64,000 bases of DNA from Agreia sp. Leaf283 (lineage in GTDB: Bacteria > Actinomycetota > Actinomycetes > Actinomycetales > Microbacteriaceae), in the NCBI RefSeq assembly GCF_001422485.1, contig NZ_LMNF01000001.1, positions 905,050 through 969,049 of the forward strand, given 5' to 3'. Below, piece after piece: positions 2,916 through 64,000 of this stretch. The notes beneath the pieces were generated by a model that saw only the letters and a program-made list of their open reading frames with translations, did not search any database and was not told the DNA's origin. A program made the translations under genes and the position numbers. Each line of letters opens with the position of its first letter. Within the stretch, counting starts at the first letter, position 1.

Positions 2916-3455
2916 CTATTGTGGAGTGCGTTCCTGTGCTGCCGCGTCGAGGTCGCGCAGGTAGTCGGCGTTGCCGCGGAGGGCGGGTTCGTAGCGGTCG
3001 ATGTCGGGCGAGTGGATGCGATCGGCCGCCAATGAGAGCAGCTCGGCGACGGCCGCATCGCTGCGTGACGCCGCGTGCAGCGAGAGCGCAAGGAACACGC
3101 GCACCGAGTCGGAGTCGGGGTAGTCGGAGCGCGCCTCGCGGAGTATGGCGATCGACTCGTCGAAGAGTCCGAGGTTTCGCAGGGTGCTGCCGTATTGCAG
3201 CAGGCAACGACGGCGCGTGTCGCCCTGCAGGCCGGCGGTGAGGGCGCGTTCGTAGAAACCGCGAGCCCGTTGCTCGTCGCCCGCGGTGTCGTAGGCCCCG
3301 CCGACCTCATAGATGGCTTGGGGGTGATCGGGATACCTCGCCAGCAGCTCGGTGAAGTACTCGATCGTCGGGGCCATGTCGTCGCGGTCGCGACGCGCGT
3401 ATCCCTCGGCGATCGCCGCGTCGAGCTCGGTCTGCGTCTCGTCAACCGAAGACAA
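2916..3455 (-). CDS. Tetratricopeptide-repeat protein
   Basis: This 179-residue soluble protein contains about four helix-turn-helix TPR units, with typical residues in PDHPQAIYEVGGAYDTAGD and LGLFDESIAILREARSDYP. TPR folds bind other proteins. The start is TTG at 3455, preceded by GGGAG at a good distance, and it overlaps the end of the upstream SRPBCC gene by 14 bases, so translation is probably coupled. Residues 1-20 are acidic. The partner is unknown; the position between a hydrolase and an SRPBCC protein does not define one. Confidence 0.85.
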   Translation of the reverse strand: MSSVDETQTELDAAIAEGYARRDRDDMAPTIEYFTELLARYPDHPQAIYEVGGAYDTAGDEQRARGFYERALTAGLQGDTRRRCLLQYGSTLRNLGLFDESIAILREARSDYPDSDSVRVFLALSLHAASRSDAAVAELLSLAADRIHSPDIDRYEPALRGNADYLRDLDAAAQERTPQ

Positions 3456-3921
3456 GCGCGTCTCCCGTTTCGAGCAGCGACTTGAGGCTCGAGAACACCA
3501 TCGGCCACCCCTCGGTGACTCCGGCGAGGATCGCGCTGCCCGAGGTGAAGCCGGTGTGGGTCACCGTGAGCTTCGCCTGCGCGCCGAACGGCTCGACGTC
3601 GAACGTCGCGGTGGAGCGTTCCTCGGCTGCCATGGAGGCGCCGAGATCGTCGTCGTCGCCGACCGCGAGCACGAACTCGTCGGTGATGGTGTGCCAGGTG
3701 AACGAGAGGCGATGCGGAGCCTCGGCTTCGAGGATCACCTGCTCGGGGTCTGCGATCGTGGCGCCGGCGACCTGCCAGGTCATGCTCGACCCCGGCATCC
3801 AATCGGTGATGTGTGTGACGCCCCAGAACTGGCTCGCCGACGACGGATCGGTGATGGCCTGCCAGATGCGTTCCGGAGTCGCGCGAATGTAGATCGTGTA
3901 GGTGAATGATTCGGCTGACAT
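3442..3921 (-). CDS. SRPBCC / AHSA1-family protein
   Basis: The 159-residue sequence begins with the YTIYIRATPERIWQAITDP strand-helix typical of AHSA1-like START-fold proteins and continues through TWQVAGATI, LSFTWHT and a C-terminal GWPMVFSSLKSLLE helix. These proteins form a hydrophobic cavity that binds a small ligand. It is first in a leftward operon with the TPR and hydrolase genes. The ATG at 3921 is the first codon that gives the family N-terminus. A longer form starting at 3999 would add an Arg-rich stretch unlike the family. Confidence 0.88.
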   Translation of the reverse strand: MSAESFTYTIYIRATPERIWQAITDPSSASQFWGVTHITDWMPGSSMTWQVAGATIADPEQVILEAEAPHRLSFTWHTITDEFVLAVGDDDDLGASMAAEERSTATFDVEPFGAQAKLTVTHTGFTSGSAILAGVTEGWPMVFSSLKSLLETGDALVFG

Positions 3922-52221: not shown

Positions 52222-52248
52222 GGATACATAAATGTGTAGATTGGATCC
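52222..52248 (+). promoter_or_regulatory. GGATACA-N14-GGATCC motif, copy 1
   Basis: GGATACA at 52222 and GGATCC at 52243 are 21 bases apart, two helical turns. The same pair with the same spacing stands at 56700 and 56721, before the other half of the catabolic cluster. Confidence 0.6.
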
Positions 52249-52288
52249 TATTCAGCGAGGCTCGCGCCTCCGACGTGAGGAGCCCCGA

Positions 52289-53311
52289 GTGATCCAGACC
52301 GTACTCGGGCCCGTCGAGGCGGCCGCGCTCGGCTCGGTCTCGATGCACGAGCATCTGCTGACCGACGCCAGCGCGCTGCAGCGCCCCGGGGTCGAGGCGC
52401 TCGACCCCGACCAGCCCGTCACAGCCGATCTCGCCGCCGCCCTGCGCTGGAGCCAGCTGGCGCTCGCCGACAACCTGCGGCTCGACGACCTCGATCTGCT
52501 GGCCGACGAGGTCGCGGGCGGCGCGCGCGCCGGACTCGGGGCCGTGGTCGACCTCAGCTCGCTCGGCTTCGGCCCCGATCACGCGCGTCTTCCCGAGCTC
52601 GCCCGCCGCGGCGGCATGCACGTCGTCGCCGGCTACGGCGCGTACCTTCCCCGTCTGCTGCCCGAGTGGTACCTGGCCCTCGACGAAGACGGGCGCACGG
52701 CGCTGTTCGAGCGGGCCCTGACCGACGCGGTGCCGGGCGCCGACTATCGCGCCGGCATCCTCGGCCTCATGGGAACGACCGGCGCGTTCTCGACCCCCGA
52801 CGGCGACGAGGAGCGTCGCAGCCTCACCGCCGCGGGCCGGGCCGCGCTCGCGACCGGCTCTGCGATCAGCGTGCGGCTCGCCGCCGACGCGCGCAACGGG
52901 CTCGTCGTGCTCGAGCATCTCACCTCCCTCGGTGTGGAGCCCCAGCGAGTGGTGTTCACCACCGTCGACGAGTTCCTCGACCTGCCCTATCTGCGCGACC
53001 TCGGCCAGGCCGGCTCGGTGCTCGAGATGTGCTTCGGCAACGAGGGCTCGCACGTCGGCCGCATCCGCAATGCGAGCGACCCGCAACGACTGGATGCCCT
53101 CGGCTCGCTTCTCGAAGACGCCCCCGACACGCGCTGGGTGCTCGGGCACAGCACCTGGACGAAGGGGCAGCTGCGCCGGTTCGGCGGACACGGCCTCGAC
53201 CATCTGAGCGCGCGGGTCGTGCCGGCGCTGAGGCTTCTCGGAGTCTCCGACGATGTGCTCCATCGCATGACCGTGCTCGAGCCGGCCCGGCTCCTCGACC
53301 TTTCCGACTGA
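52289..53311 (+). CDS. Phosphotriesterase-family protein with degenerate metal site
   Basis: The 340-residue protein starts VIQTVLGPVEAAALGSVSMH and keeps the HEHLL block of PTE-like amidohydrolases near residue 20. The other ligands appear lost: the bridging Lys/Glu position reads GILGLMGTTG, the first late His reads ISVRLAADA, the second reads VVFTTVDEF, and the final Asp region reads VLGHSTWTK. It may be a pseudo-enzyme or use another mechanism. The start is GTG 52289, after GAGGAG. It is followed 26 bases later by an aldehyde dehydrogenase gene. Confidence 0.82.
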   Translation: MIQTVLGPVEAAALGSVSMHEHLLTDASALQRPGVEALDPDQPVTADLAAALRWSQLALADNLRLDDLDLLADEVAGGARAGLGAVVDLSSLGFGPDHARLPELARRGGMHVVAGYGAYLPRLLPEWYLALDEDGRTALFERALTDAVPGADYRAGILGLMGTTGAFSTPDGDEERRSLTAAGRAALATGSAISVRLAADARNGLVVLEHLTSLGVEPQRVVFTTVDEFLDLPYLRDLGQAGSVLEMCFGNEGSHVGRIRNASDPQRLDALGSLLEDAPDTRWVLGHSTWTKGQLRRFGGHGLDHLSARVVPALRLLGVSDDVLHRMTVLEPARLLDLSD

Positions 53312-53337
53312 CCAGAACCCACCACCCGGAGGACCCC

Positions 53338-54792
<1,455 letters not shown>

Positions 54793-54832
54793 CCCTCGCG
54801 CGCCTCCCCTCGCTGGACGCCACGGCCTCACC

Positions 54833-54888
54833 GAGGTGCGGGAAGTGGCCGCCTCATCCGTCGACGAAGCGGCCACTCTCCGCACTTC
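54833..54888. repeat. 56-nt intergenic palindrome, class I copy B
   Basis: The outer arms are GAGGTGCGG/CCGCACTTC and the inner arms GGCCGC/GCGGCC. Compared with copy A, a T-A pair in the inner stem is replaced by C-G. It lies 40 bases after the ALDH stop, before the convergent MFS gene. Confidence 0.8.
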
Positions 54889-54930
54889 AGTGCGTCACGC
54901 GACCGGCGCGTGGGCGGGGGCGGGCTTCGC

Positions 54931-56148
54931 TCAGACGAGCGGCGGCTCCACCGCGGGGGCCACGCCGCGGCCGCCCTCGAGCCGTCTGCTCAGAATCGGG
55001 ATGGCGGCGAGCTGCAGCACGGCGAGGATGACCAGCGCCTCGCGTGATCCGAGGGTCGAGACGAGAAGGCCGCCGACGAGCGAGCCCGTCGCGTAGCCGG
55101 CGCTCGTGAAGGCGGAGAAGACGCCCACGCCTGTGGCCCGTCGCGCAGGATCGAGCCGTTGCGTCGACAGCAGCGTGAGCGCGGGGAACAGCGGCGAGTA
55201 CCCGACGCCGATGAGGACGGCGCCGACCGCCGCAGACGGGAAGTCGCTGGCGAACGCCAGAACCGCGAGGCCCGCGGCCAGCACCGCCAGGCTGATGCGG
55301 GCGGTGATGGTCGCGCCGATGCGATCGGGCAGTCCTCCGAGAAGCAGGCGCGACGCCACGACGCTGAGCGCGAAGACGGTGAACACGTTCGCGGCTCCGA
55401 AGAGGCCCTGCGCCTCGACCCCGTGGCCGATCAGGTGCGCGATGAGGAAGGCGATGAGGAAGCCCTCGGCGGCCCAGGCGAGAAATCCCACGCTTCCGGG
55501 GCGCAGGAGGGTCGCGATCAGGGGCCTGCCGGCCGGCGCCGGCTCGGCGCGGTCGACGACCGCGCGAGGCGGGGCACTGCCGTCGCGCGCCAGCATGGCC
55601 AGGAACAGGCCCGCGAGCTGCACGACCACCGCGGTCGCCCAGACCGCCCGGTAGCCGAAGGTCTGCAGCAGGTTCTCGCCGATCACGGGGCCGAGCGCCA
55701 GGCCCACCCACACGCTCAGCCCGAAGAAGCCGAGTGCTCGGCCCCGTTCTCCAACCGGGGTCTCGGCCACCACCCAGGCGGTCAGGGCCGTCGCGACCGC
55801 CGCGTTGCCGGCGCCGAAGACGATACGGCTCGCGGCCAGGCTCGGCACGGTCAGCAGCACCAGCACGAGAAGCAGTCCGGCGGCGCTGAGAACGGCCGCG
55901 CCCGCGATCACGCGCCGGGGTCCCCAGCGGTCGGTGAGTGCCCCGGCGATGGGCATCGCGATGATCGAGGCGAAGGCGGCCAGCGACACGAGCAGCCCGC
56001 CGACGGCGGCGTCCGCCCCCAGCTGCTGCTGCGCGAGGCGGGGGATGACGGGGGTGGTGGCGCCGTTGACGATGTGTCCGGCCGTAGAGGCCAGAACCAG
56101 CGTCCAGAACGCGATCCCCTTCGTGCCGGTCTCGCGAAGGGGCCTCAC
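54931..56148 (-). CDS. MFS transporter
   Basis: The 405-residue protein has 12 membrane segments and the motif A variant GALTDRWGPRRVIAGAAVLS near residue 75. It starts with GTG 56148, overlapping the RidA-like gene stop by 4 bases. It probably imports the substrate, or exports a product, of the surrounding catabolic genes. It has no large central loop. The cargo is unknown. Confidence 0.9.
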   Translation of the reverse strand: MRPLRETGTKGIAFWTLVLASTAGHIVNGATTPVIPRLAQQQLGADAAVGGLLVSLAAFASIIAMPIAGALTDRWGPRRVIAGAAVLSAAGLLLVLVLLTVPSLAASRIVFGAGNAAVATALTAWVVAETPVGERGRALGFFGLSVWVGLALGPVIGENLLQTFGYRAVWATAVVVQLAGLFLAMLARDGSAPPRAVVDRAEPAPAGRPLIATLLRPGSVGFLAWAAEGFLIAFLIAHLIGHGVEAQGLFGAANVFTVFALSVVASRLLLGGLPDRIGATITARISLAVLAAGLAVLAFASDFPSAAVGAVLIGVGYSPLFPALTLLSTQRLDPARRATGVGVFSAFTSAGYATGSLVGGLLVSTLGSREALVILAVLQLAAIPILSRRLEGGRGVAPAVEPPLV

Positions 56149-56651
56149 CCGGTGGTGTCGAGCGGCCGGCACTCGAGGCTGAGCCACAGCTCGAAGCACG
56201 CGCTACGAGAGAGGGCGGTGGCGCCGATCGACGCGCGGCCCATGCGGCCGGCGTCGGGCCCGAACACGTCGAGCAGCAGATCGCTCGCCGCGTTGGACAC
56301 CTCGTTGAGCAGCGTGAAGCCGGGAGGGCAGAGCACGAAGCAGAGGCCGCGCGAGAGCGCCACGACCTCGTCGAGGCTGCCGAGCGCGTAGCGGATCATG
56401 CCCAGTGCGTTCACTGCCGTGTAGCGGGCCGCCTCGCGAGCCTGTTCCAGGGTGATGTCGACGCCGACGCTTCCGCCGTGCAGCATCTCGCCGCTCCGGG
56501 ACTCCGGGGTGATTCCGCTGAGTTCGAGCAGGTTGCCGGTGCGGTGGAACGCGCGCAGCGAGCTGCCGTAGCGGCCGCCGTAGGGAGGGTCGGAGTAGTC
56601 GGGGATCTCGAGGCCGAGCTCGAGTGCTCGTGCCTCTGCGGAGTGCGTCAT
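56145..56651 (-). CDS. RidA/YjgF-family protein
   Basis: The 168-residue protein fits the YjgF/RidA fold with a longer start: LLELSGITPESRSGEMLHGG, the helix LEQAREAARYTAVNALGMIR, SLDEVVALSRGLCFVLCPPG and the end ATALSRSACFELWLSLEC. The usual active Arg of RidA is replaced by Ser in ALSRSACFELWL, so it may be a non-deaminase member. RidA proteins remove reactive imines formed by PLP and flavin enzymes, which fits the amino-transferase-like and amine oxidase genes next door. GAGGAAG precedes ATG 56651. Confidence 0.85.
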   Translation of the reverse strand: MTHSAEARALELGLEIPDYSDPPYGGRYGSSLRAFHRTGNLLELSGITPESRSGEMLHGGSVGVDITLEQAREAARYTAVNALGMIRYALGSLDEVVALSRGLCFVLCPPGFTLLNEVSNAASDLLLDVFGPDAGRMGRASIGATALSRSACFELWLSLECRPLDTTG

Positions 56652-56699
56652 GTGTCTTCCTCGTGCCGGGCGTCCAGCGTAACCGCCGGTGGCGTAAGT

Positions 56700-56737
56700 G
56701 GATACAACCTGATTAGTATGGGATCCATTATGCATCC
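56700..56737. promoter_or_regulatory. GGATACA-N14-GGATCC motif, copy 2, with GGATCCATTATGCATCC palindrome
   Basis: GGATACA at 56700 and GGATCC at 56721 keep the 21-base spacing seen at 52222. The second box is part of a 17-bp near-palindrome. It lies in the divergent promoter region between the RidA-like and class V PLP-enzyme genes. Confidence 0.65.
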
Positions 56738-56767
56738 AATCTGATGCCATGAGGAAGGAGCCGCGAC

Positions 56768-58009
56768 ATGACCATCGGTCTCGAGGGCGATACCAGCGCC
56801 TCGCTGCGGGCACGTCCGATCGACGTGTCGGCCGAGCGTTCTCGCACGATCGGCGCGGCGGGTCGCCACTACTTCAACGCGGCCGGATCCGGACTCATGA
56901 CCGATGCCGTCATCGAGGCCATGGTGATGCACCTCCGTCTCGAGCAGCGCATGGGCGGATACGAGGCCGCGACTCTCAGAGCGCCCGAGCTGGCGGCGGG
57001 CTACGAGGCCGCCGCGGCTCTGCTCGGCGCCCGGCCCGACGAGATCGCCTTCTTCGACAGCGCCACCTCCGGCCTGCGCGCCGTCTTCGACGCGCTGCGT
57101 CTCGGCGACGGCGACACCGTTCTTGCCCCTCGCTCGAGCTACGTCAGCCAGGCGCTCCGGATGCTCGCCCTCAGCCGGTACGACGGCGTGCGGCTTCGGA
57201 TCATCGAGACGGATGGCACGGGCGCGATGGACCTCGACGCCCTCGAGAGCGAGCTCGCGTCGGCCCCCGGGCGCACCGTCATCAGCGCCGTGCACATCCC
57301 CACCTCATCGGGGCTGGTGGAGCCCGTCGCCGAGATCGGTGCACTCGGCCGCCGCTACGGCGCACTCACCGTGCTCGACGCGACCCAGTCGGTGGGCCAC
57401 CTCGAGATCGACGTGACGCTGCTCGACTGCGACGCGCTCGTGACCACCGGCCGTAAGTACGTGCGCGGTCCCCGGGGTACCGGATTCGTGTACCTGCGCG
57501 CCGGGATGCTCGACGGCATAGGAGGCTGGGCACCCGACGTGCGAGGCTCGGTATGGACCGGGGCGGAGGAGTGGACGATGGACGACACCGCTCGCCGGCT
57601 CGAGACGTGGGAGTTCTCGGTCGCCGCGCGCCTGGGACTGGGCGTCGCGTTGAGCGAGGCGATCGAACGCGGGGTCGCGCAGACCGAGGCTCACCTGGTC
57701 TCCTCCGGCACGCGCCTGCGCGACGGTCTCGCCGACATCGCCGGCGTCTCCGTCACCGACCCGCGAGCGTCGCCCTCCGGACTGGTGACGTTCACCGTAG
57801 ACGGGGTCGCGGGCAAAGGGGTCAGCGCCCAGCTGCGCGAGGCCCGTATCGACTCCATCTCCGTACCCGCCGGGCATGCTCAATGGGATCTCGGCGCACG
57901 CGGCCTCGCGAGCGTCGTGAGGGTGTCACCCCACGTCTACAACGACGACGACGACACGGCGGCGCTGCTCCGGCACGTGGCTGGCATCGCACGGGAGGCG
58001 AGCCGATGA
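56768..58009 (+). CDS. Class V aminotransferase / cysteine-desulphurase-like PLP enzyme
   Basis: The 413-residue enzyme has FNAAGSGLMTDAVIEAMVMH near the start, FFDSATSGLRAVFDAL, a PLP Asp/Gln in VLDATQSVGHLEIDV near residue 208 and the Schiff-base Lys in VTTGRKYVRGPRGTGFVYL near residue 225. It is similar to isopenicillin-N-epimerase-like and EgtE-type C-S lyases. GAGGAAGGAG lies upstream of ATG 56768. It is first in a five-gene rightward operon with 4-bp overlaps. The substrate is unknown. Confidence 0.9.
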   Translation: MTIGLEGDTSASLRARPIDVSAERSRTIGAAGRHYFNAAGSGLMTDAVIEAMVMHLRLEQRMGGYEAATLRAPELAAGYEAAAALLGARPDEIAFFDSATSGLRAVFDALRLGDGDTVLAPRSSYVSQALRMLALSRYDGVRLRIIETDGTGAMDLDALESELASAPGRTVISAVHIPTSSGLVEPVAEIGALGRRYGALTVLDATQSVGHLEIDVTLLDCDALVTTGRKYVRGPRGTGFVYLRAGMLDGIGGWAPDVRGSVWTGAEEWTMDDTARRLETWEFSVAARLGLGVALSEAIERGVAQTEAHLVSSGTRLRDGLADIAGVSVTDPRASPSGLVTFTVDGVAGKGVSAQLREARIDSISVPAGHAQWDLGARGLASVVRVSPHVYNDDDDTAALLRHVAGIAREASR

Positions 58010-59097
58010 CTCTTCGCGACGTCGTCGTTCTCGGCCTCGGAATCCACGGATCGGCCGCCGCGTTCGAGCTCGCCCAGCGCGGGCTCGACGTCGTCGGCAT
58101 CGAGCAGTTCGAGTCGGGTCATGTGCGCGGGTCGTCGCACGGCGCGACCCGCATGATCCGCCGCGCCTACCCGCATCCGGTCTGGAACGACTTGGTCGAC
58201 CGCGCCTACCTCGGCTGGGACCGTTGGAACCTCGCGGCCGGTCGCCCGTTCGTGACCACCACGGGTGGGCTTTACGCGCACGACGGAGCGCCGACCCTGC
58301 AGGGCGGACACAGCCGACCCGTGGCCGAGGAGGAGCGCAAGACGATCGCCCCGTCGTTCGCGCCCCCAGCCGACTTCGGAGTCGTGCACGATCCCGACGC
58401 CGGCGTGATCGACGCGGCCGGCGCCCTCGCCTTCGCCCGCGCGGGCGCCCGAGCCGCCGGTGCCGAGCTGAGATTCGGCGAAACGGTGCTCGATTACAGC
58501 GTCGACGCGAGAGTGGTGACCGTGCGCACGTCGGCCGAGACGATCCGCGCCAGACGACTCGTTCTCGCGGGCGGAGCCTGGGCGCCCGCACTTGTTCCCC
58601 AGGCGGCGAGCTTCTTCGAGGTGTGGCGCATCGTCACGCTCACCGTTGCCGCCGGCCAGGCCGTCGCCCAGCCCCCGGCGCTCGGCTGCTTCTCGGTCGA
58701 CCTGCCAGAGGGGCTCGTGTTCGGCCTCCCCGAGGCATCGGGCTCGGGAGCCAAGATCGGCATCGACGCCGGCCCGGTCTGGAACCCGGATGTGCCCGTC
58801 GCCCCGCCGACCGACGCCGAGGTGCGGCAGCTGGCCGAGCTGCTCGGCCGCTTCGTACCCGGAATCGACACCACGCAGGGCGAGGCCGTCGCCTGCCTCT
58901 ACACGATGACGCCCGACAAGCGCTTCGTCGTGGGCGCCCTGCCCGGAACGCCCGAGGTCGTACTGGCCTCGGCCTGCTCCGGCCACGGCTTCAAGTTCGG
59001 CCCGGCCATCGGCGAGGCGGTCGCCGACCTCGTGACCGGCGTGGCTCGACCCGACCTCGACTTCGTCAGCCCCGCCCGCATGGAGGCCCACGTATGA
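58006..59097 (+). CDS. FAD-dependent oxidase, sarcosine / N-methyl-amino-acid oxidase (MSOX/SolA) type
   Basis: The 363-residue flavoenzyme begins with the FAD loop VVVLGLGIHGSAAAFELAQR and GSSHGATRMIRRAYPHP, the active-site loop of MSOX. CLYTMTPDKRFVVG near residue 298 places a Cys at the position that carries covalent flavin in MSOX, and ACSGHGFKFGPAIGEAV is the end block. It should oxidise a secondary amine or N-methyl amino acid to an imine or aldehyde plus H2O2. Its ATG overlaps the PLP-enzyme stop. Confidence 0.9.
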   Translation: MTLRDVVVLGLGIHGSAAAFELAQRGLDVVGIEQFESGHVRGSSHGATRMIRRAYPHPVWNDLVDRAYLGWDRWNLAAGRPFVTTTGGLYAHDGAPTLQGGHSRPVAEEERKTIAPSFAPPADFGVVHDPDAGVIDAAGALAFARAGARAAGAELRFGETVLDYSVDARVVTVRTSAETIRARRLVLAGGAWAPALVPQAASFFEVWRIVTLTVAAGQAVAQPPALGCFSVDLPEGLVFGLPEASGSGAKIGIDAGPVWNPDVPVAPPTDAEVRQLAELLGRFVPGIDTTQGEAVACLYTMTPDKRFVVGALPGTPEVVLASACSGHGFKFGPAIGEAVADLVTGVARPDLDFVSPARMEAHV

Positions 59098-60623
59098 CCA
59101 CCGACACGCCTCGTTCGGCGGCCCGTATCGCCGTGGCCGCACCGCACCCTGCCGCGCTCGAAGCGGCATCCGAGGCCGTAGCCGCGGGAGGCGACGCCAT
59201 CGACGCGGCCCTCGCGGCCGCGGCGGCGCTGACCGTCGTCTACCCGCACCAGTGCGCGATCGGCGGTGACCTCGTAGCGCTCGTGCGTCGCCCCGACGGC
59301 AGCGTGACCGCGGTGCTCTCGGCCGGCGCCGCCCCGGCCGCGATCGACGTCGCGGCACTGTCGCGCCACGAGCGGATGCCCAAACAGGGCGCGCAGACCG
59401 TGACCGTTCCGGGCGTGGTCGCCGGATGGCGGGCCCTCGATGCGCTCGGCGGACGCCTCGGCCTCGCGGCCCCGCTGCAGCGTGCGGCGCGCCTCGCCGC
59501 CGACGGCTTCGCCGTGTCGAAGGGCCTGGCCCGCGCCGTCGCGATCCGCCGAGAGGAGCTGCTGGCAGACGAGGGCACGCGCGACATCTTCGGCGACGGG
59601 CGGGGCGGGCTCGCGATCGAGGGCGACCTCATCGTGCAGCCCGCGCTCGCGGCCACGCTCGACGAGCTCGCTCTCGATCCCGGCGCCTTCTACGAGGGAC
59701 GCATCGCCTCCTCCCTGGCCGCGCGGTTGCGCACGCTGGGCGGAGCGCACACCGAGGCCGACTTCGCCGCGCACGAGGCCGAGATCGCAGAACCGGTCAC
59801 GTCGTCGCTGGGCGGCGCGCGCTGGTGGGTGGCCCCGCCGCCCAGCCAGGGCGTCGTGCTGCTCGGCATCCTGCCCGAGGCGCTCGACGGCGACACGGCC
59901 GAGCTCGTGGGTGCCGTGCACAGGGCGGCGCTCATCCGGCAGGCGCAGCTCGGCGATCCGCGCGGGGGCCCGATCGACGTCGACGCGATGCTGCGCCCTA
60001 GTTTTGGGGCGTACGAGGGCGCGCTTCCCCGCGCCGGCCGAGCGCTCGGAGACACCGTCGCCGTGACCGCCGCAGGCTCCGACGGAACCGTCGTGACTCT
60101 CATTCAGAGCGTCTACCAGCTCTTCGGCTCGGGCATCCTCGACCCCGAGACGGGCGTGCTGCTGCACAACCGGGGCTCGGCATTCAGCACCGACCCCGCG
60201 CATCCGGGGCATGTCGGGCCCGGCCTGCGGCCGCCGCACACCCTGCTGCCCGTGATCGCGCAGACCGACGAACTCGTGGTCGGACTCGGCTGCCAGGGCG
60301 GCAGCGCCCAGCCCTGGATCCTCTCGCAGCTCGTGCGCGACCTCATCGACCCCTCCGCAGCTCCGGTCGGCACGCTCGGCCGGCCGCGGTTCATCATCGG
60401 CGCCCGCGACATCGGCCACGAGGTCATGACGCTGGTCGCCGAGCCCGGGATGCGCGTGGCCGCGGAGGCCGCGCACGATCTCGGCCTGCCCGTGGTCACC
60501 ACCGACGGTCTCATCGACGACGCCGGCCACGTGCAGGTGGTGCGCCTGCACGCCGACGGACGCCTCGACGCCGCGAGCGATCCCCGCGCCGACGGGCGAG
60601 CCGTCGTGTTCGACGCCCCCTGA
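59094..60623 (+). CDS. Gamma-glutamyltransferase-family Ntn hydrolase
   Basis: The 509-residue precursor has VAAGGDAIDAALAAAAALTV and YPHQCAIGGDLVALV at the start and the autoprocessing site at GD-T near residue 321 (nucleotides about 60054), followed by DGTVVTLIQSVYQLFGSGIL. The usual TTH after the cleavage is TVA here, so the nucleophile is kept but the next two residues differ. There is no signal peptide, so it is cytoplasmic. It may hydrolyse gamma-glutamyl amides. It overlaps the oxidase gene by 4 bases. Confidence 0.88.
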   Translation: MTTDTPRSAARIAVAAPHPAALEAASEAVAAGGDAIDAALAAAAALTVVYPHQCAIGGDLVALVRRPDGSVTAVLSAGAAPAAIDVAALSRHERMPKQGAQTVTVPGVVAGWRALDALGGRLGLAAPLQRAARLAADGFAVSKGLARAVAIRREELLADEGTRDIFGDGRGGLAIEGDLIVQPALAATLDELALDPGAFYEGRIASSLAARLRTLGGAHTEADFAAHEAEIAEPVTSSLGGARWWVAPPPSQGVVLLGILPEALDGDTAELVGAVHRAALIRQAQLGDPRGGPIDVDAMLRPSFGAYEGALPRAGRALGDTVAVTAAGSDGTVVTLIQSVYQLFGSGILDPETGVLLHNRGSAFSTDPAHPGHVGPGLRPPHTLLPVIAQTDELVVGLGCQGGSAQPWILSQLVRDLIDPSAAPVGTLGRPRFIIGARDIGHEVMTLVAEPGMRVAAEAAHDLGLPVVTTDGLIDDAGHVQVVRLHADGRLDAASDPRADGRAVVFDAP

Positions 60624-60655
60624 ACCAGCCCATCCCACCACCCGAAGGAAGCCCC

Positions 60656-62635
60656 ATGACCGCCCACGTTCTCGATCCCCTCACCTCAGCCGAGATCGCC
60701 TCGTTCGTCGCAGCGGTGCGTGCCAGCGACCGCATCGGCGCGCGTCCCCGCTTCTGGGGCATCTCGCTCGACGAGGAGAAGGCGAAGGCGCTGAAGCCGG
60801 GCGACGCGCGACCCGTGCGGCTCGTCGTGATGAACCCCGACGCACACGCATCCTGGGAGGTGCGCGGCTGGACGGCCGGCCCGACGAACGACGCGATCGT
60901 CGAGGTGTGGTCGGATGTCGACCACCGGCGCCCCGGGGTGTCGAGCGACGAGGCGCGCCTGATCGCGCGGGCGGCACGCGACTCGCCCCTGCTGGTCGAG
61001 GCGCTCGCGAAGCGCGGCATCACCGACACGTCGCTGGTCTGGGTCGACCCCGAGTCGATCACGGGCTTCGTGCCCGACGACCTCGCCGATCGCCGACTGA
61101 GCTGGGGAACCGTCTGGTACCGGGAGTTCCCGGAGGACAACGGCTACGCCCGCCCCGTCGCGGGGCTCGTGCCCATTCTCGACCTCGACACCCTCGAGGT
61201 GATCCGCATCGAGGACCATGGTGTGATCCCCATGGCGAGCGAGACAGGCGTGTACACGCCCGGAACCTGGGGGCCGAACCGCACTGTGGCGCCTCTGGAT
61301 GTCGTGCAGCCCGAGGGCCCCGGCTTCACCATCGAGGGCCGGCAGGTGACGTGGCAGAACTGGTCGTTCCGCGTGGGCTTCAGCCACCGCGAGGGGCTCG
61401 TGCTGCACGAGGTGAGCTACCGCGACGGCGACACGGTGCGACCGGTCATCGACCGGGCGGCCGTCAACGAGATGTACGTGCCGTACCTCGACAGCGACCC
61501 CACCGCCTACCGCAAGAACTTCTTCGACTGGGGCGAGTACGGCGCGGGGCCGCTGACCGCGAGCCTCGAGCTCGGCTGCGACTGCCTCGGCGAGATCCGC
61601 TACTTCGACGTGGAATACCTCGACGGCCTCGGCGAACCGCAGACGATCGCGAACGGCATCTGCATCCACGAGGAGGATGACTCGATCCTCTGGAAGCACG
61701 TCAACACCCGCACGGGCAGCGCCGAGGTGCGCCGCAGCCGCCGACTCGTCATCTCGAGCTTCGCCACGGTCGCGAACTACGACTACGGCTTCTACTGGTC
61801 GCTCTATCAGGACGGCTCGATCGAGCTCGAGGTGAAGCTCACCGGCCTCATGTCGGTGTCGGGCATCGCCGACGGCGAGCGCCCCCGCTACGGCCGACTG
61901 GTCGCCCCGAACGTGCAGGCCCCCACCCACCAGCACTACTTCGCGGTACGCCTCGACATGGCGATCGACGGCGCCCTGAACCGCCTCGTCGAGGTGCACG
62001 CCGAGCCGGAGCCCGACGAGGCCCTGAACCCCTGGGGCAACGCCTGCATCGCGGTCGAGACGCCGATCTCGTCGGAGGCGCTCGGAGCGCGGCGGGCCGA
62101 CCCGGCGAAGGCCCTGCACTGGAGGGTCGAGAGCGAATCGGCGGTGAACCGCTACGGCGACAGCACCGCCTACCGGCTCGCCATCCAGAACACGGCCCAG
62201 CTCTACGCCCGGCCCGGCAGCGTCGTCGAGCGCAAGGCTCCCTTCGTGGCGCAGCACCTCTGGGCCAGCGCGTTCGACCCCGAGCAGCGCTTCATCGCCG
62301 GCGAGTACCCCAACCAGGGCGAGCTCGGCGACGACGGCGTGCACGTGTGGCAGCAGGCCGACCGCTCGCTCGAGAACGAGAGGCTCGTGCTCTGGCCCGT
62401 GCTCGGCGTGCATCACTTCCCCCGCCCGGAGCAGTGGCCGATCATGCCGGTCGACCGCATCACGCTGCGACTCGAGCCCGACGGATTCTTCGACCGCAAT
62501 CCCTCGCTCGACGTGCCGCCGTCGGCGATGTCCGACCACTGCGCCGCGCCGAACGCGGAGCACGACCACGATCATGCCGGGCACGATCATGCCGGGCACG
62601 ACCACCAGCAGCACGGCCACGAGGGAGGCCGCTGA
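60656..62635 (+). CDS. Primary-amine oxidase (copper/TPQ) with His-rich C-terminal tail
   Basis: The 659-residue enzyme has the N3 and catalytic domains of bacterial copper amine oxidases. The TPQ precursor Tyr is in ATVANYDYGFYW near residue 378 and the catalytic Asp is in YVPYLDSDPTAYRKNFFDWG near residue 280; copper ligands are the HQHYF pair near residue 424 and a His in the LGVHHFPRPEQWPIMP block. The last 25 residues contain about ten His in HDHAGHD repeats, a probable copper-binding tail. It converts a primary amine to an aldehyde, NH3 and H2O2. GAAGGAAG precedes ATG 60656. Confidence 0.95.
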   Translation: MTAHVLDPLTSAEIASFVAAVRASDRIGARPRFWGISLDEEKAKALKPGDARPVRLVVMNPDAHASWEVRGWTAGPTNDAIVEVWSDVDHRRPGVSSDEARLIARAARDSPLLVEALAKRGITDTSLVWVDPESITGFVPDDLADRRLSWGTVWYREFPEDNGYARPVAGLVPILDLDTLEVIRIEDHGVIPMASETGVYTPGTWGPNRTVAPLDVVQPEGPGFTIEGRQVTWQNWSFRVGFSHREGLVLHEVSYRDGDTVRPVIDRAAVNEMYVPYLDSDPTAYRKNFFDWGEYGAGPLTASLELGCDCLGEIRYFDVEYLDGLGEPQTIANGICIHEEDDSILWKHVNTRTGSAEVRRSRRLVISSFATVANYDYGFYWSLYQDGSIELEVKLTGLMSVSGIADGERPRYGRLVAPNVQAPTHQHYFAVRLDMAIDGALNRLVEVHAEPEPDEALNPWGNACIAVETPISSEALGARRADPAKALHWRVESESAVNRYGDSTAYRLAIQNTAQLYARPGSVVERKAPFVAQHLWASAFDPEQRFIAGEYPNQGELGDDGVHVWQQADRSLENERLVLWPVLGVHHFPRPEQWPIMPVDRITLRLEPDGFFDRNPSLDVPPSAMSDHCAAPNAEHDHDHAGHDHAGHDHQQHGHEGGR

Positions 62636-64000
62636 TGTCGCACCTCGCCGACTGGAGCGCGACCCGGCTCGCGAGCTCGATCGCGTCGGGCGACGTCTCG
62701 GCCGTGGAGGTGATGCGGGCCCACCTCGAGCGCATCGAGGAACGCAACCCCGACATCCGGGCCGTCGTCTCGCAGCAGCCCGACTCGGTGTCGCTGGCCG
62801 CTGCGGAGGAGGCGGACCGGCGCACGGCGAGCGCGAAGGCGGCCGGCGAGCCGCTGCCGCCCCTGCACGGCCTGCCGACCGCGGTCAAAGACCTGATGGA
62901 TGTCGCGGGCCTGCCCACGACGAACGGCTCGGCCGCGTTCGCCGACGCCCCGCCCGCCCAGCACGACAGCGTGCTCGCGACGCTTCTGCGGGAGGCCGGA
63001 GCGCTCATCATCGGCAAGACGAACACCCCGGAGATGGGCCAGGGCGTTCTCACGTTCAACCCCGTGTTCGGCACCACGGTCAACCCGTGGGACACGACCC
63101 GGCACGCGGGCGGATCGAGCGGCGGAGCAGCCGCGGCACTCGCAGCCCGCATGCTCCCGATCGCCGACGGCTCCGACAGCGGCGGCAGCCTGCGCTATCC
63201 GGCCGCGTTCTGCAACGTCGTCGGCGTGCGCCCGACCCCGGGCCGTGTGGCCAGCGGGCGCACCGGCAACGCCTGGACGCCGCACGGCGTCACCGGACCG
63301 ATGGCCCGTGACTCGGCCGACGCCGCGCTCTTCCTCGATGCGCTCTCGGTCGAGAAGGGCGTCTGGCCCCTGTCGTCGCTCCCCGTGCATGCGGCACGTC
63401 CCGTCGAGCTCGACGGGCTGCGCATTGCCTGGAGCGCCGACGCGGGAGGGCTGCCGATCGATCCGGATGTCGCCGCCGTGCACGCCGCGTTCGCCGAGCA
63501 ACTGGCGGGCCTCGGCGCGATCGTCGAGCCGGGGGAACCCGACTTCGCGGGCGCCGACGAGGCCTGGGAGACGATCGAGACGTTCGAGTTCTTCCTCGGC
63601 GGCCGCCACGCGGTCGATGCCGGCGCCACCGGATTCCGCCCCGACTACCTGCGCAACGTCGAGCAGGGCCGCCAGACGTCGGCGACCCAGCTCGCAGACG
63701 CCTACGAGCGGCGTACGCGGGCGTTCCGCGACACGACCGCGCTGCTCGAGCGCTACGACGTGATCGTGCTGCCCGCCACGCCGGTCGCGGCTCCGGATGC
63801 CGGGCTCGAGTGGGTGGAGACGGTCGACGGCACCCGTTTCGAGCGCTACTTCACCTGGCAGATGCTCGCGAACCGCCTGACCCTCACGGCGCATCCGGTG
63901 GTCGTCACCTCGGCCGGCTTCACCGCCGACGGGCTCCCCGTGGGCGTGCAGGTCGTCGGCCGGCACGGCCGCGAGCTGCAGCTGCTCGCGGTGACGCGGG
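62635..64000 (+). CDS. Amidase signature family hydrolase (C-terminal end beyond window)
   Basis: At least 455 residues are present. The Ser-Ser-Lys triad is visible: Lys in LPTAVKDLMDVAG near residue 84, the Gly/Ser loop HAGGSSGGAAAALA near residue 160 and the nucleophile in ADGSDSGGSLRYPAAFCNVV near residue 183. It begins at an ATG that shares one base with the amine oxidase stop (TGATG). It may release an amine from an amide, or hydrolyse a product amide, in the same pathway. The gene has only a few residues left to run, judging from the usual family length. Confidence 0.92.
   Translation, partial: MSHLADWSATRLASSIASGDVSAVEVMRAHLERIEERNPDIRAVVSQQPDSVSLAAAEEADRRTASAKAAGEPLPPLHGLPTAVKDLMDVAGLPTTNGSAAFADAPPAQHDSVLATLLREAGALIIGKTNTPEMGQGVLTFNPVFGTTVNPWDTTRHAGGSSGGAAAALAARMLPIADGSDSGGSLRYPAAFCNVVGVRPTPGRVASGRTGNAWTPHGVTGPMARDSADAALFLDALSVEKGVWPLSSLPVHAARPVELDGLRIAWSADAGGLPIDPDVAAVHAAFAEQLAGLGAIVEPGEPDFAGADEAWETIETFEFFLGGRHAVDAGATGFRPDYLRNVEQGRQTSATQLADAYERRTRAFRDTTALLERYDVIVLPATPVAAPDAGLEWVETVDGTRFERYFTWQMLANRLTLTAHPVVVTSAGFTADGLPVGVQVVGRHGRELQLLAVTR

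What the first reader, a model, noticed from the sequence alone, without database searches (positions are those of the whole stretch)
52222..64000. Candidate amine or gamma-glutamyl-compound catabolic system
Copper amine oxidase, MSOX-type flavin oxidase, GGT-like Ntn hydrolase, class V PLP enzyme, amidase, RidA-like protein, MFS transporter, ALDH and a degenerate PTE-like protein are grouped in two units that share a promoter motif. The set would cover import, deblocking, oxidative deamination, imine removal and aldehyde oxidation. I know of no described pathway with this exact set.
Basis: inference. Interest (0 to 1): 0.75.

Follow-up and report, generated by a model that had tools for sequence, protein, structure and literature searches.

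The report
Actinobacterial amine–guanidine catabolic regulon
A set of bacterial genes for breaking down some still unknown nitrogen-rich compound shares one DNA switch signal, is kept together in many related bacteria, and appears to feed the known pathway that recycles guanidine.

Summary
The two genes upstream (TetR, NmrA) match nothing in 80 loci. The shared promoter motif is real: a palindrome, TTGGATCCAA, also in front of a conserved GntR gene just outside the window. Its perfect form occurs at 3 sites in the 3.98-Mb genome, all in this cluster.

The window shows only part of the regulon, which runs about 14 kb further (importer, hydrolases, lactonase) up to a urea/guanidine-carboxylase operon. 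The gamma-glutamyl reading is not supported here: the GGT-like protein is of acylase type and the genome lacks the glutamylating synthetase, though relatives have one plus a Rieske oxygenase. Carboxyguanidine-deiminase-type genes co-occur with the cluster (7 of 9 against 23 of 290 genomes). In two Jiangella genomes they lie in one operon with cluster genes and no carboxylase was found. Best reading: an undescribed pathway for a guanidine-bearing amine. The substrate is unknown.

The parts
52240..52251 (.). Operator ATTGGATCCTAT in front of PTE-ALDH
   Evidence: 1 mismatch to ATTGGATCCAAT; one of 6 places in the genome with at most 1 mismatch; sequence
52289..53311 (+). PTE-like protein with HxH kept but other metal-ligand positions apparently replaced
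   Evidence: PF02126 97 bits; H20 and H22 invariant in 15 of 15 aligned; loss of the other ligands judged by eye from the family pattern as recalled
53338..54792 (+). Aldehyde dehydrogenase
   Evidence: PF00171 605 bits; ALDH in 51 of 74 distinct loci
54931..56148 (-). MFS transporter
   Evidence: PF07690 158 bits; in 13 of 74 distinct loci
56145..56651 (-). RidA-like protein
   Evidence: PF14588 28 bits, below cut-off 35; in 18 of 74 distinct loci
56698..56707 (.). First site of a conserved operator pair (GTGGATACAA)
   Evidence: 2 mismatches; 21 bp from the next site; near-identical pair in Rathayibacter loci
56719..56728 (.). Second operator site (TGGGATCCAT)
   Evidence: 2 mismatches
56768..58009 (+). 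Class V PLP enzyme, distant relative of EgtE and cysteine desulfurases
   Evidence: PF00266 146 bits; EgtE model 168 against cut-off 400; D204, K230, R385 invariant in 9 of 9
58006..59097 (+). MSOX/MTOX-type flavin amine oxidase
   Evidence: PF01266 147 bits; MTOX model 236 against cut-off 257; fused to the PLP enzyme in 21 of 74 distinct loci
59094..60623 (+). GGT-like Ntn hydrolase of the acylase type
   Evidence: PF01019 284 bits; best solved relatives 2nlz and 2i3o; T321, at the place of the recalled nucleophile, invariant in 9 of 9
60656..62635 (+). Copper amine oxidase with His-rich tail
   Evidence: NF008559 741 bits against cut-off 651; NFFDWGEYG, Y164 and R166 in 71 of 71 aligned (window plus 70, six of these from duplicate genomes)
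62635..64000 (+). Amidase, continues outside the window to coordinate 64047 (L008:1685-3097)
   Evidence: PRK07486 subfamily 387 bits, below cut-off 465; in 17 of 74 distinct loci

Best explanation
The window holds the first part of one GntR-controlled catabolic regulon for a nitrogen-rich, amino-acid-like amine that probably carries a guanidine-type unit. Shown by computation: the genes are conserved together and share the operator TTGGATCCAA, which also lies at the GntR gene, the AmHy1-CDA genes, the ABC importer and the lactonase gene. Inferred: GntR represses the regulon until the compound or a product binds it. The compound enters through the Opp-type ABC importer or the MFS carrier. Amidase, GGT-like acylase, amidohydrolases and lactonase free or open it. 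The PLP enzyme and the flavin oxidase, fused in many relatives, act in turn on its amino-acid part, and the RidA-like protein clears the imine. The copper amine oxidase turns a primary amine into an aldehyde, which ALDH oxidises. The remaining N-C-N fragment goes through carboxyguanidine deiminase-type proteins and allophanate hydrolase to ammonia and CO2. In many relatives a glutamyl-amine synthetase plus Rieske oxygenase is added.
For: Linkage: PLP+MSOX+CuAO in 63 of 74 distinct loci, from Microbacteriaceae, Micromonospora, Streptomyces, Jiangella, Kineosporia, Nocardioides and others. Boundary: TetR and NmrA match nothing in 80 loci.

Regulation: perfect operator at 3 sites in the genome, all in L008 (before GntR/DUFm, AmHy1 and the ABC binding protein); 12-mer with at most 1 mismatch at 6 places, 5 of them in one 25-kb stretch.

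Unlinked parts follow: AmHy1 orthologues at 83% identity or more are in 8 of 9 PLP-positive genomes and 1 of 290 others. In two Rathayibacter and one Salinibacterium genome they sit in a second locus with the importer and the same operator.

Guanidine link: UAAP2 in 7 of 9 PLP-positive against 23 of 290 other family genomes (p=1.6e-6, not corrected for relatedness); 4 of 4 against 38 of 380 in a class-wide draw, the window's own genome being one of the 4. In Jiangella RidA, PTE, UAAP1, UAAP2 and allophanate hydrolase lie in line, mostly overlapping, behind 2-mismatch operator-like sites; no full-length urea/guanidine carboxylase was found in either genome at E 1e-100.

Fusion: PLP and MSOX in one protein in 21 loci.
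Against: No substrate, expression or binding data. Every step order is inferred. Guanidine genes also occur in three genomes of the same genus that lack the cluster (G077, G238, G278), so adjacency there could be positional. Two of 9 PLP-positive family genomes (G191, G195) have neither UAAP2 nor a full-length carboxylase. Four genomes without the PLP enzyme have a 56-60% AmHy1 relative. No riboswitch reached its threshold in seven loci. The guanidine operon of this genome has no operator site with up to 2 mismatches in front. The operator is missing at 1 mismatch from many regions: RidA|PLP 4 of 17, GntR|CuAO 3 of 7, '-|PTE' 1 of 5. The RidA-like protein is below its Pfam cut-off. Eight more distant PLP hits (L101, L103-L106, L108-L110) and L030 were left out of the counts; L030 has no other cluster gene.
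Confidence: 0.6

Rival explanations
1. A general amine-scavenging regulon: copper amine oxidase, ALDH and hydrolases release nitrogen from many amines and amides, and the guanidine genes are neighbours only because nitrogen-scavenging genes cluster.
For: Hydrolase content varies between lineages. The genome has two more copper amine oxidases elsewhere. Guanidine genes occur without the cluster in the same genus.
Against: A specific GntR and an operator nearly confined to this cluster; core order conserved over many genera; UAAP and allophanate genes in line with PTE in Jiangella without a carboxylase; PLP-oxidase fusion points to dedicated successive steps.
Confidence: 0.22
2. A gamma-glutamylated amine pathway like putrescine or aniline breakdown: the amine is glutamylated, oxidised and freed by the GGT-like protein.
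For: 39 of 74 distinct loci carry a glutamine-synthetase-like protein and 45 a Rieske oxygenase. The synthetase is closest among solved structures to NpaA1, which glutamylates aromatic amines (PMC11335346, abstract and passages read).
Against: The window's genome has neither gene. The GGT-like protein misses the gamma-glutamyltransferase cut-off and carries an NRG motif shared with acylase-type relatives 2nlz and 2i3o.
Confidence: 0.1
3. A creatinine- or N-methylhydantoin-like route: cyclic amidine opened by CDA, creatininase, hydantoinase and isochorismatase-type enzymes, with the MSOX-type protein as sarcosine oxidase.
For: CDA in 26, creatininase-type in 20, isochorismatase-type in 15 of 74 distinct loci; hydantoinase A/B in one Jiangella operon.
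Against: The models tested miss their functional cut-offs: creatininase 134 of 235; soxA model 163 of 480. Copper amine oxidase, PLP enzyme, GGT-like and Rieske have no role in it.
Confidence: 0.08

Closest known systems
Guanidine carboxylase pathway (Gca, CgdAB, AtzF)
   Same: UAAP1, UAAP2, allophanate hydrolase and a full-length carboxylase are encoded next to the regulon in this genome. That CgdAB are proteins annotated for urea metabolism rests on the title of Schneider et al. 2020 in the reference lists of PMC12508155 and PMC9800807 (passages read); that UAAP1/2 are those proteins is recalled.
   Different: Here it is attached to a large amine catabolic regulon; in two Jiangella genomes no carboxylase was found, so the fragment would have to come from upstream steps.
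1-Naphthylamine/aniline glutamylation systems (NpaA1, AtdA1)
   Same: Synthetase next to a Rieske oxygenase in relatives; 415-bit match to the NpaA1 structure.
   Different: Absent from this genome; the tunnel loop has a conserved K-D (38 of 38) where, by my alignment, NpaA1 has a Phe; the Rieske is of the phthalate/LigXa type.
Arthrobacter phenylethylamine oxidase (AGAO)
   Same: Closest solved copper amine oxidase (456 bits); NYDY and His positions kept.
   Different: NFFDWGEY and YARP in place of NYFDTGEY and WAHP, invariant in 71 of 71 except the A of YARP.
Hercynylcysteine sulfoxide lyase EgtE / cysteine desulfurases
   Same: Class V family, PLP lysine.
   Different: 168 bits against a cut-off of 400; no ergothioneine genes were noticed beside it.
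Creatinine degradation via N-methylhydantoin (recalled)
   Same: Similar enzyme families: CDA, hydantoinase, isochorismatase-type hydrolase, MSOX-type oxidase.
   Different: No equivalog-level match in the models tested; many extra enzymes.

Membership tests
Gamma-glutamyltransferase | NCBIfam equivalog TIGR00066 cut-off | tested here: not met
   213 bits against 358
Gamma-glutamyltransferase | Gamma-glutamyl pocket residues (recalled from E. coli GGT) | tested here: inconclusive
   HNRGSAF and PPHT in place of the recalled pattern; NRG motif shared with 2nlz and 2i3o; no structure model possible
Gamma-glutamyl amine pathway | Glutamyl-organic-amine synthetase in the genome | tested here: not met
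   Best own hit 32% identity, E 1.2e-43, against E 2.4e-228 or better in the three relatives that have it
Primary amine oxidase (copper, TPQ) | PRK11504 subfamily cut-off and NYDY/His positions | tested here: met
   741 bits against 651; motifs in 71 of 71
N-methyl-L-tryptophan oxidase | NF008425 cut-off | tested here: not met
   236 bits against 257
EgtE | TIGR04343 cut-off | tested here: not met
   168 bits against 400
Phosphotriesterase | Pfam PTE gathering score | tested here: met
   97 bits against 22
Phosphotriesterase | Binuclear metal site (HxH, Lys, His, His, Asp; pattern recalled) | tested here: inconclusive
   HxH invariant in 15 of 15; other positions look replaced by different conserved residues, judged by eye
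Guanidine carboxylase pathway | UAAP1, UAAP2, carboxylase and allophanate hydrolase together | tested here: met
   L130/L008 next to the regulon: carboxylase TIGR02712 1771 bits, UAAP1 TIGR03425 288 bits. UAAP2 and allophanate hydrolase of this genome were not scanned themselves: UAAP2 is 79% identical to the L044 protein that passes (316 of 285); the hydrolase is 64-65% identical to the Jiangella proteins that pass
Guanidine carboxylase pathway | Asp rather than Asn at the specificity position; riboswitch | tested here: inconclusive
   Residue not tested; no Rfam match at the gathering threshold in 7 loci
Single GntR regulon | Binding of GntR to the operator | not testable with these tools
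   Only the motif and its place are shown

The most novel reading that the evidence does not exclude
An undescribed actinobacterial pathway (an island of about 50 kb in its fullest form seen here, in one Jiangella and one Microbacteriaceae genome) takes apart a natural compound that joins a primary amine, an amino-acid part and a cyclic acylguanidine (for example a 2-aminoimidazolone or a 2-amino-4-oxopyrimidine such as a pterin or deazaguanine). Ring opening releases carboxyguanidine directly, which goes to CgdAB and allophanate hydrolase without free guanidine and, in Jiangella, without a carboxylase. Two hydrolase-fold proteins with altered metal sites (PTE-like, AmHy1) are dedicated new enzymes in it.
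Probability: 0.25. Interest if true: 0.82.

Novelty: new variant of a known kind. Interest (0 to 1): 0.6.

Why it matters
It ties some twenty protein families that are annotated only in general terms (copper amine oxidase, MSOX, GGT-like, PLP, RidA, amidohydrolases) to one regulated pathway with a defined candidate operator, so one inducer search could name them together. It offers a specific role for a group of actinobacterial amine oxidases. If carboxyguanidine is made directly, it would be an unrecognised source of nitrogen for the carboxyguanidine deiminase and allophanate hydrolase pair, and a clue to a compound not yet known as a bacterial food.

Tried and rejected
Rejected: 'Rieske/synthetase and amidase/RidA are mutually exclusive alternatives'. 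In 10-kb flanks it looked so (p about 1e-6), but Salinibacterium G143 (second locus), Jiangella and the Microbacteriaceae genome G608 carry both. The pattern came from short flanks.

Rejected: histamine or imidazoleacetate breakdown, considered from memory; the paper search listed no matching gene set (listing only). Vitamin B6, nicotine, betaine, benzoxazolinone and folate routes were weighed from memory only; none explains copper amine oxidase, PLP enzyme and UAAP genes together. Folate/pterin is kept only as one example in the novel case.

Rejected as orthologues: plasmid copies of the PLP enzyme in Rhizobium and Streptomyces (the 15 of 60 records listed are at most 41% identical). I opened two of the 60 and saw no other core gene annotated (PLSDB annotation is incomplete). 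Rieske-synthetase pairs occur on plasmids of Methylobacterium and Cupriavidus without the core in 12-kb flanks; I opened two of 40 records. AmHy1 has no plasmid match at E 1e-30.

Led nowhere: GGT on plasmids (two hits at 36-37%); Rfam (none). Of the 21 places in the genome with up to 2 mismatches to the 12-mer, 15 lie outside the cluster; I looked at five of these and recognised no related genes; ten were not looked at.

Counting notes: one search found 116 relatives and kept the best 80. I analysed 72 of these 80 plus L022-L029, that is 80 loci; six are the same genomes twice, so 74 are distinct. Amidase was first counted in 18 loci; one of these (L071) is an allophanate hydrolase, so it is 17. 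Genes were called by my own codon-usage script trained on seven window genes, so starts and small genes may be wrong. The early co-occurrence table and the exclusivity test include the duplicates.
Full report
1. What is there. The window is G000:C1:905050-969049 of a 3.98-Mb genome. The amidase runs past the window end to window coordinate 64047.

2. It continues. Downstream (L008) come GntR (3174-3866, minus), a small membrane protein with no Pfam match, AmHy1 (Amidohydro_2), a CDA-like deaminase, a YtcJ-like amidohydrolase, an Opp-type ABC importer (binding protein scanned; permease and ATPase parts by similarity), an Xaa-Pro-dipeptidase-like amidohydrolase, an alpha/beta hydrolase and a metallo-beta-lactamase-type gene at L008:16168-16974, which ends 13.9 kb beyond the window and is named from its Agreia relative (82% identical, related to AHL lactonases). 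Then follow a TetR-like gene (named by reading, not scanned), allophanate hydrolase, urea carboxylase, UAAP2, UAAP1 and a permease (L008, L130).

3. Conservation. In a draw of 299 family genomes the PLP enzyme is in 10, one of them only 39% identical. I read the surroundings of the nine relatives: eight keep PLP, MSOX, GGT and CuAO in this order (one with a cyclase gene between); L030 keeps nothing else. A scan of the species-genome contigs found 116 relatives and kept 80 loci. I analysed 72 of these plus the eight, leaving out L101, L103-L106, L108-L110 (35-37% identity, mostly Bacteroidota) and L030. Without six duplicates, 74 distinct loci remain: PLP 73, MSOX 66, CuAO 66, GntR 59, GGT 51, ALDH 51, Rieske 45, synthetase 39, AmHy1 31, CDA 26, PDR reductase 23, alpha/beta hydrolase 22, PTE 20, creatininase-type 20, RidA 18, cyclase 18, amidase 17, isochorismatase-type 15, MFS 13, UAAP2 6. 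Many loci end within 10 kb of the PLP gene, so these are lower bounds. In 21 of them PLP and MSOX are one protein.

4. Regulation. The palindrome TTGGATCCAA appears with at most 1 mismatch in 85 of 124 promoter regions (shuffles: mean 0.8, maximum 4), or 75 of 109 without duplicates and without this genome. By type: GntR|other 16 of 16, GntR|PDR 11 of 11, GntR|DUFm 9 of 9, other|PLP 12 of 15, |PTE 5 of 6; weaker are GntR|CuAO 3 of 7, |GntR 4 of 8, other|PTE 1 of 5 and RidA|PLP 4 of 17, the last with the spaced pair of 2-mismatch sites instead. In the own genome the perfect 10-mer occurs 3 times, all in L008. The 12-mer with at most 1 mismatch occurs at 6 places: 5 in C1:957289-982110 and one with no recognised related gene nearby. 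With up to 2 mismatches 21 places appear against 4 for the reversed control pattern; 6 of the 21 are in the cluster. In Rathayibacter the GntR gene lies in a second locus while the first keeps the site pair. That GntR binds this motif is inference.

5. Unlinked parts follow the core. AmHy1 orthologues (83% or more) are in 8 of 9 PLP-positive genomes and in 1 of 290 others; four more of the others have a 56-60% relative. In G045, G171 and G143 AmHy1 lies away from the core, each time with CDA, importer, AmHy2 and the same operator. This is the strongest sign that both halves serve one pathway.

6. Guanidine link. UAAP2 is in 30 of 299 family genomes, but in 7 of the 9 with the PLP orthologue (p=1.6e-6 by genome, 7e-4 by genus, not corrected for relatedness). 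In a class-wide draw it is in 42 of 384, and in all 4 with the PLP enzyme, one of these the window's own. Six of 74 distinct loci hold UAAP2 in the fetched flanks of up to 10 kb (four Curtobacterium, one Nocardioides, one Kineosporia). In Jiangella G409, on a contig other than the core's, RidA-PTE-UAAP1-UAAP2-allophanate hydrolase lie in line, overlapping by 4 bp at three of the four junctions. G483, on the core's contig, has the same order with an oxidase and hydantoinase A/B inserted. Palindromes with 2 mismatches to the operator lie in front in both. Allophanate hydrolase (662 and 666 against 511), UAAP1 and UAAP2 pass their cut-offs. At E 1e-100 the carboxylase search found nothing in G409 and only biotin-carboxylase-sized parts in G483; of the other ten cluster genomes searched, eight have a full-length match and G191 and G195 only parts. 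Both Jiangella assemblies are in many contigs, so a gap cannot be excluded. In Rathayibacter G045 a perfect operator lies between cyclase and lactonase genes close to its UAAP operon. CgdAB as carboxyguanidine deiminase, and the Asp/Asn difference between guanidine and urea carboxylases, come from passages of PMC12508155, PMC9800807 and PMC12186494. Against: three same-genus genomes have UAAP2 without the cluster, and G191 and G195 have the cluster without UAAP2.

7. Clues to the substrate. PLP R385 and MSOX R49/R52 are invariant in 9 of 9; that they bind carboxylate is recalled from related enzymes. The copper amine oxidase has an invariant Arg (R166) and Trp (W292, beside the recalled catalytic Asp) in 71 of 71, where phenylethylamine oxidase has His and Thr. 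The relatives' synthetase has Lys-Asp in the loop of the amine tunnel (38 of 38, one genome twice) where my alignment puts a Phe that PMC11335346 describes. Together these suggest an amine that carries a carboxylate. AmHy1 has DAYNT where related amidohydrolases usually have HxH (recalled; 95% or more of 35; 14 of 14). None of this names the compound.

8. Mechanism and verdict. The order proposed (import, hydrolytic opening, PLP/flavin oxidation of the amino-acid part, amine oxidase and ALDH on the primary amine, N-C-N fragment to ammonia) is inference from family chemistry. Shown: one conserved gene set with one operator motif, tied to carboxyguanidine/allophanate genes. Six paper searches aimed at such a cluster showed no description; two returned nothing, the rest were judged from listings, and one search listed only 10 of 19. 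They cover only the held open-access library, so 'undescribed' is limited to it. I rate it a new variant of a known kind: a new catabolic regulon built of known enzyme families, with a possibly new entry into guanidine metabolism.

Noticed in passing
L073:9950-12391 and 20 further loci: The PLP enzyme and the MSOX-type oxidase are one protein of about 730-935 aa.
   Followed up: partly
window:62558-62632: The copper amine oxidase ends in a His-rich tail; 30 of 71 aligned sequences have at least 6 His in the last 30 residues. It may bind copper.
   Followed up: no
L160:6873-11628 and L148:6576-15931: Jiangella carries UAAP1, UAAP2 and allophanate hydrolase while no full-length urea/guanidine carboxylase was found in the genome.
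   Followed up: partly
L008:4718-5479: AmHy1 is among the most conserved proteins of the set (82% in L029, where the core proteins are 47-69%) and lacks the usual HxH metal motif.
   Followed up: partly
L010:7704-9701 and L011:8488-10527: Two further copper amine oxidases in the genome: one beside what read like an aminotransferase and ALDH, one beside a small membrane protein that by eye resembles the DUFm proteins following the cluster's amine oxidase.
   Followed up: no
L144:10571-13431 and L145:10597-13431: A Rieske oxygenase next to a related synthetase (about 50% identical) also occurs on plasmids of Methylobacterium and Cupriavidus without the amine oxidase core in the annotated flanks.
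   Followed up: no
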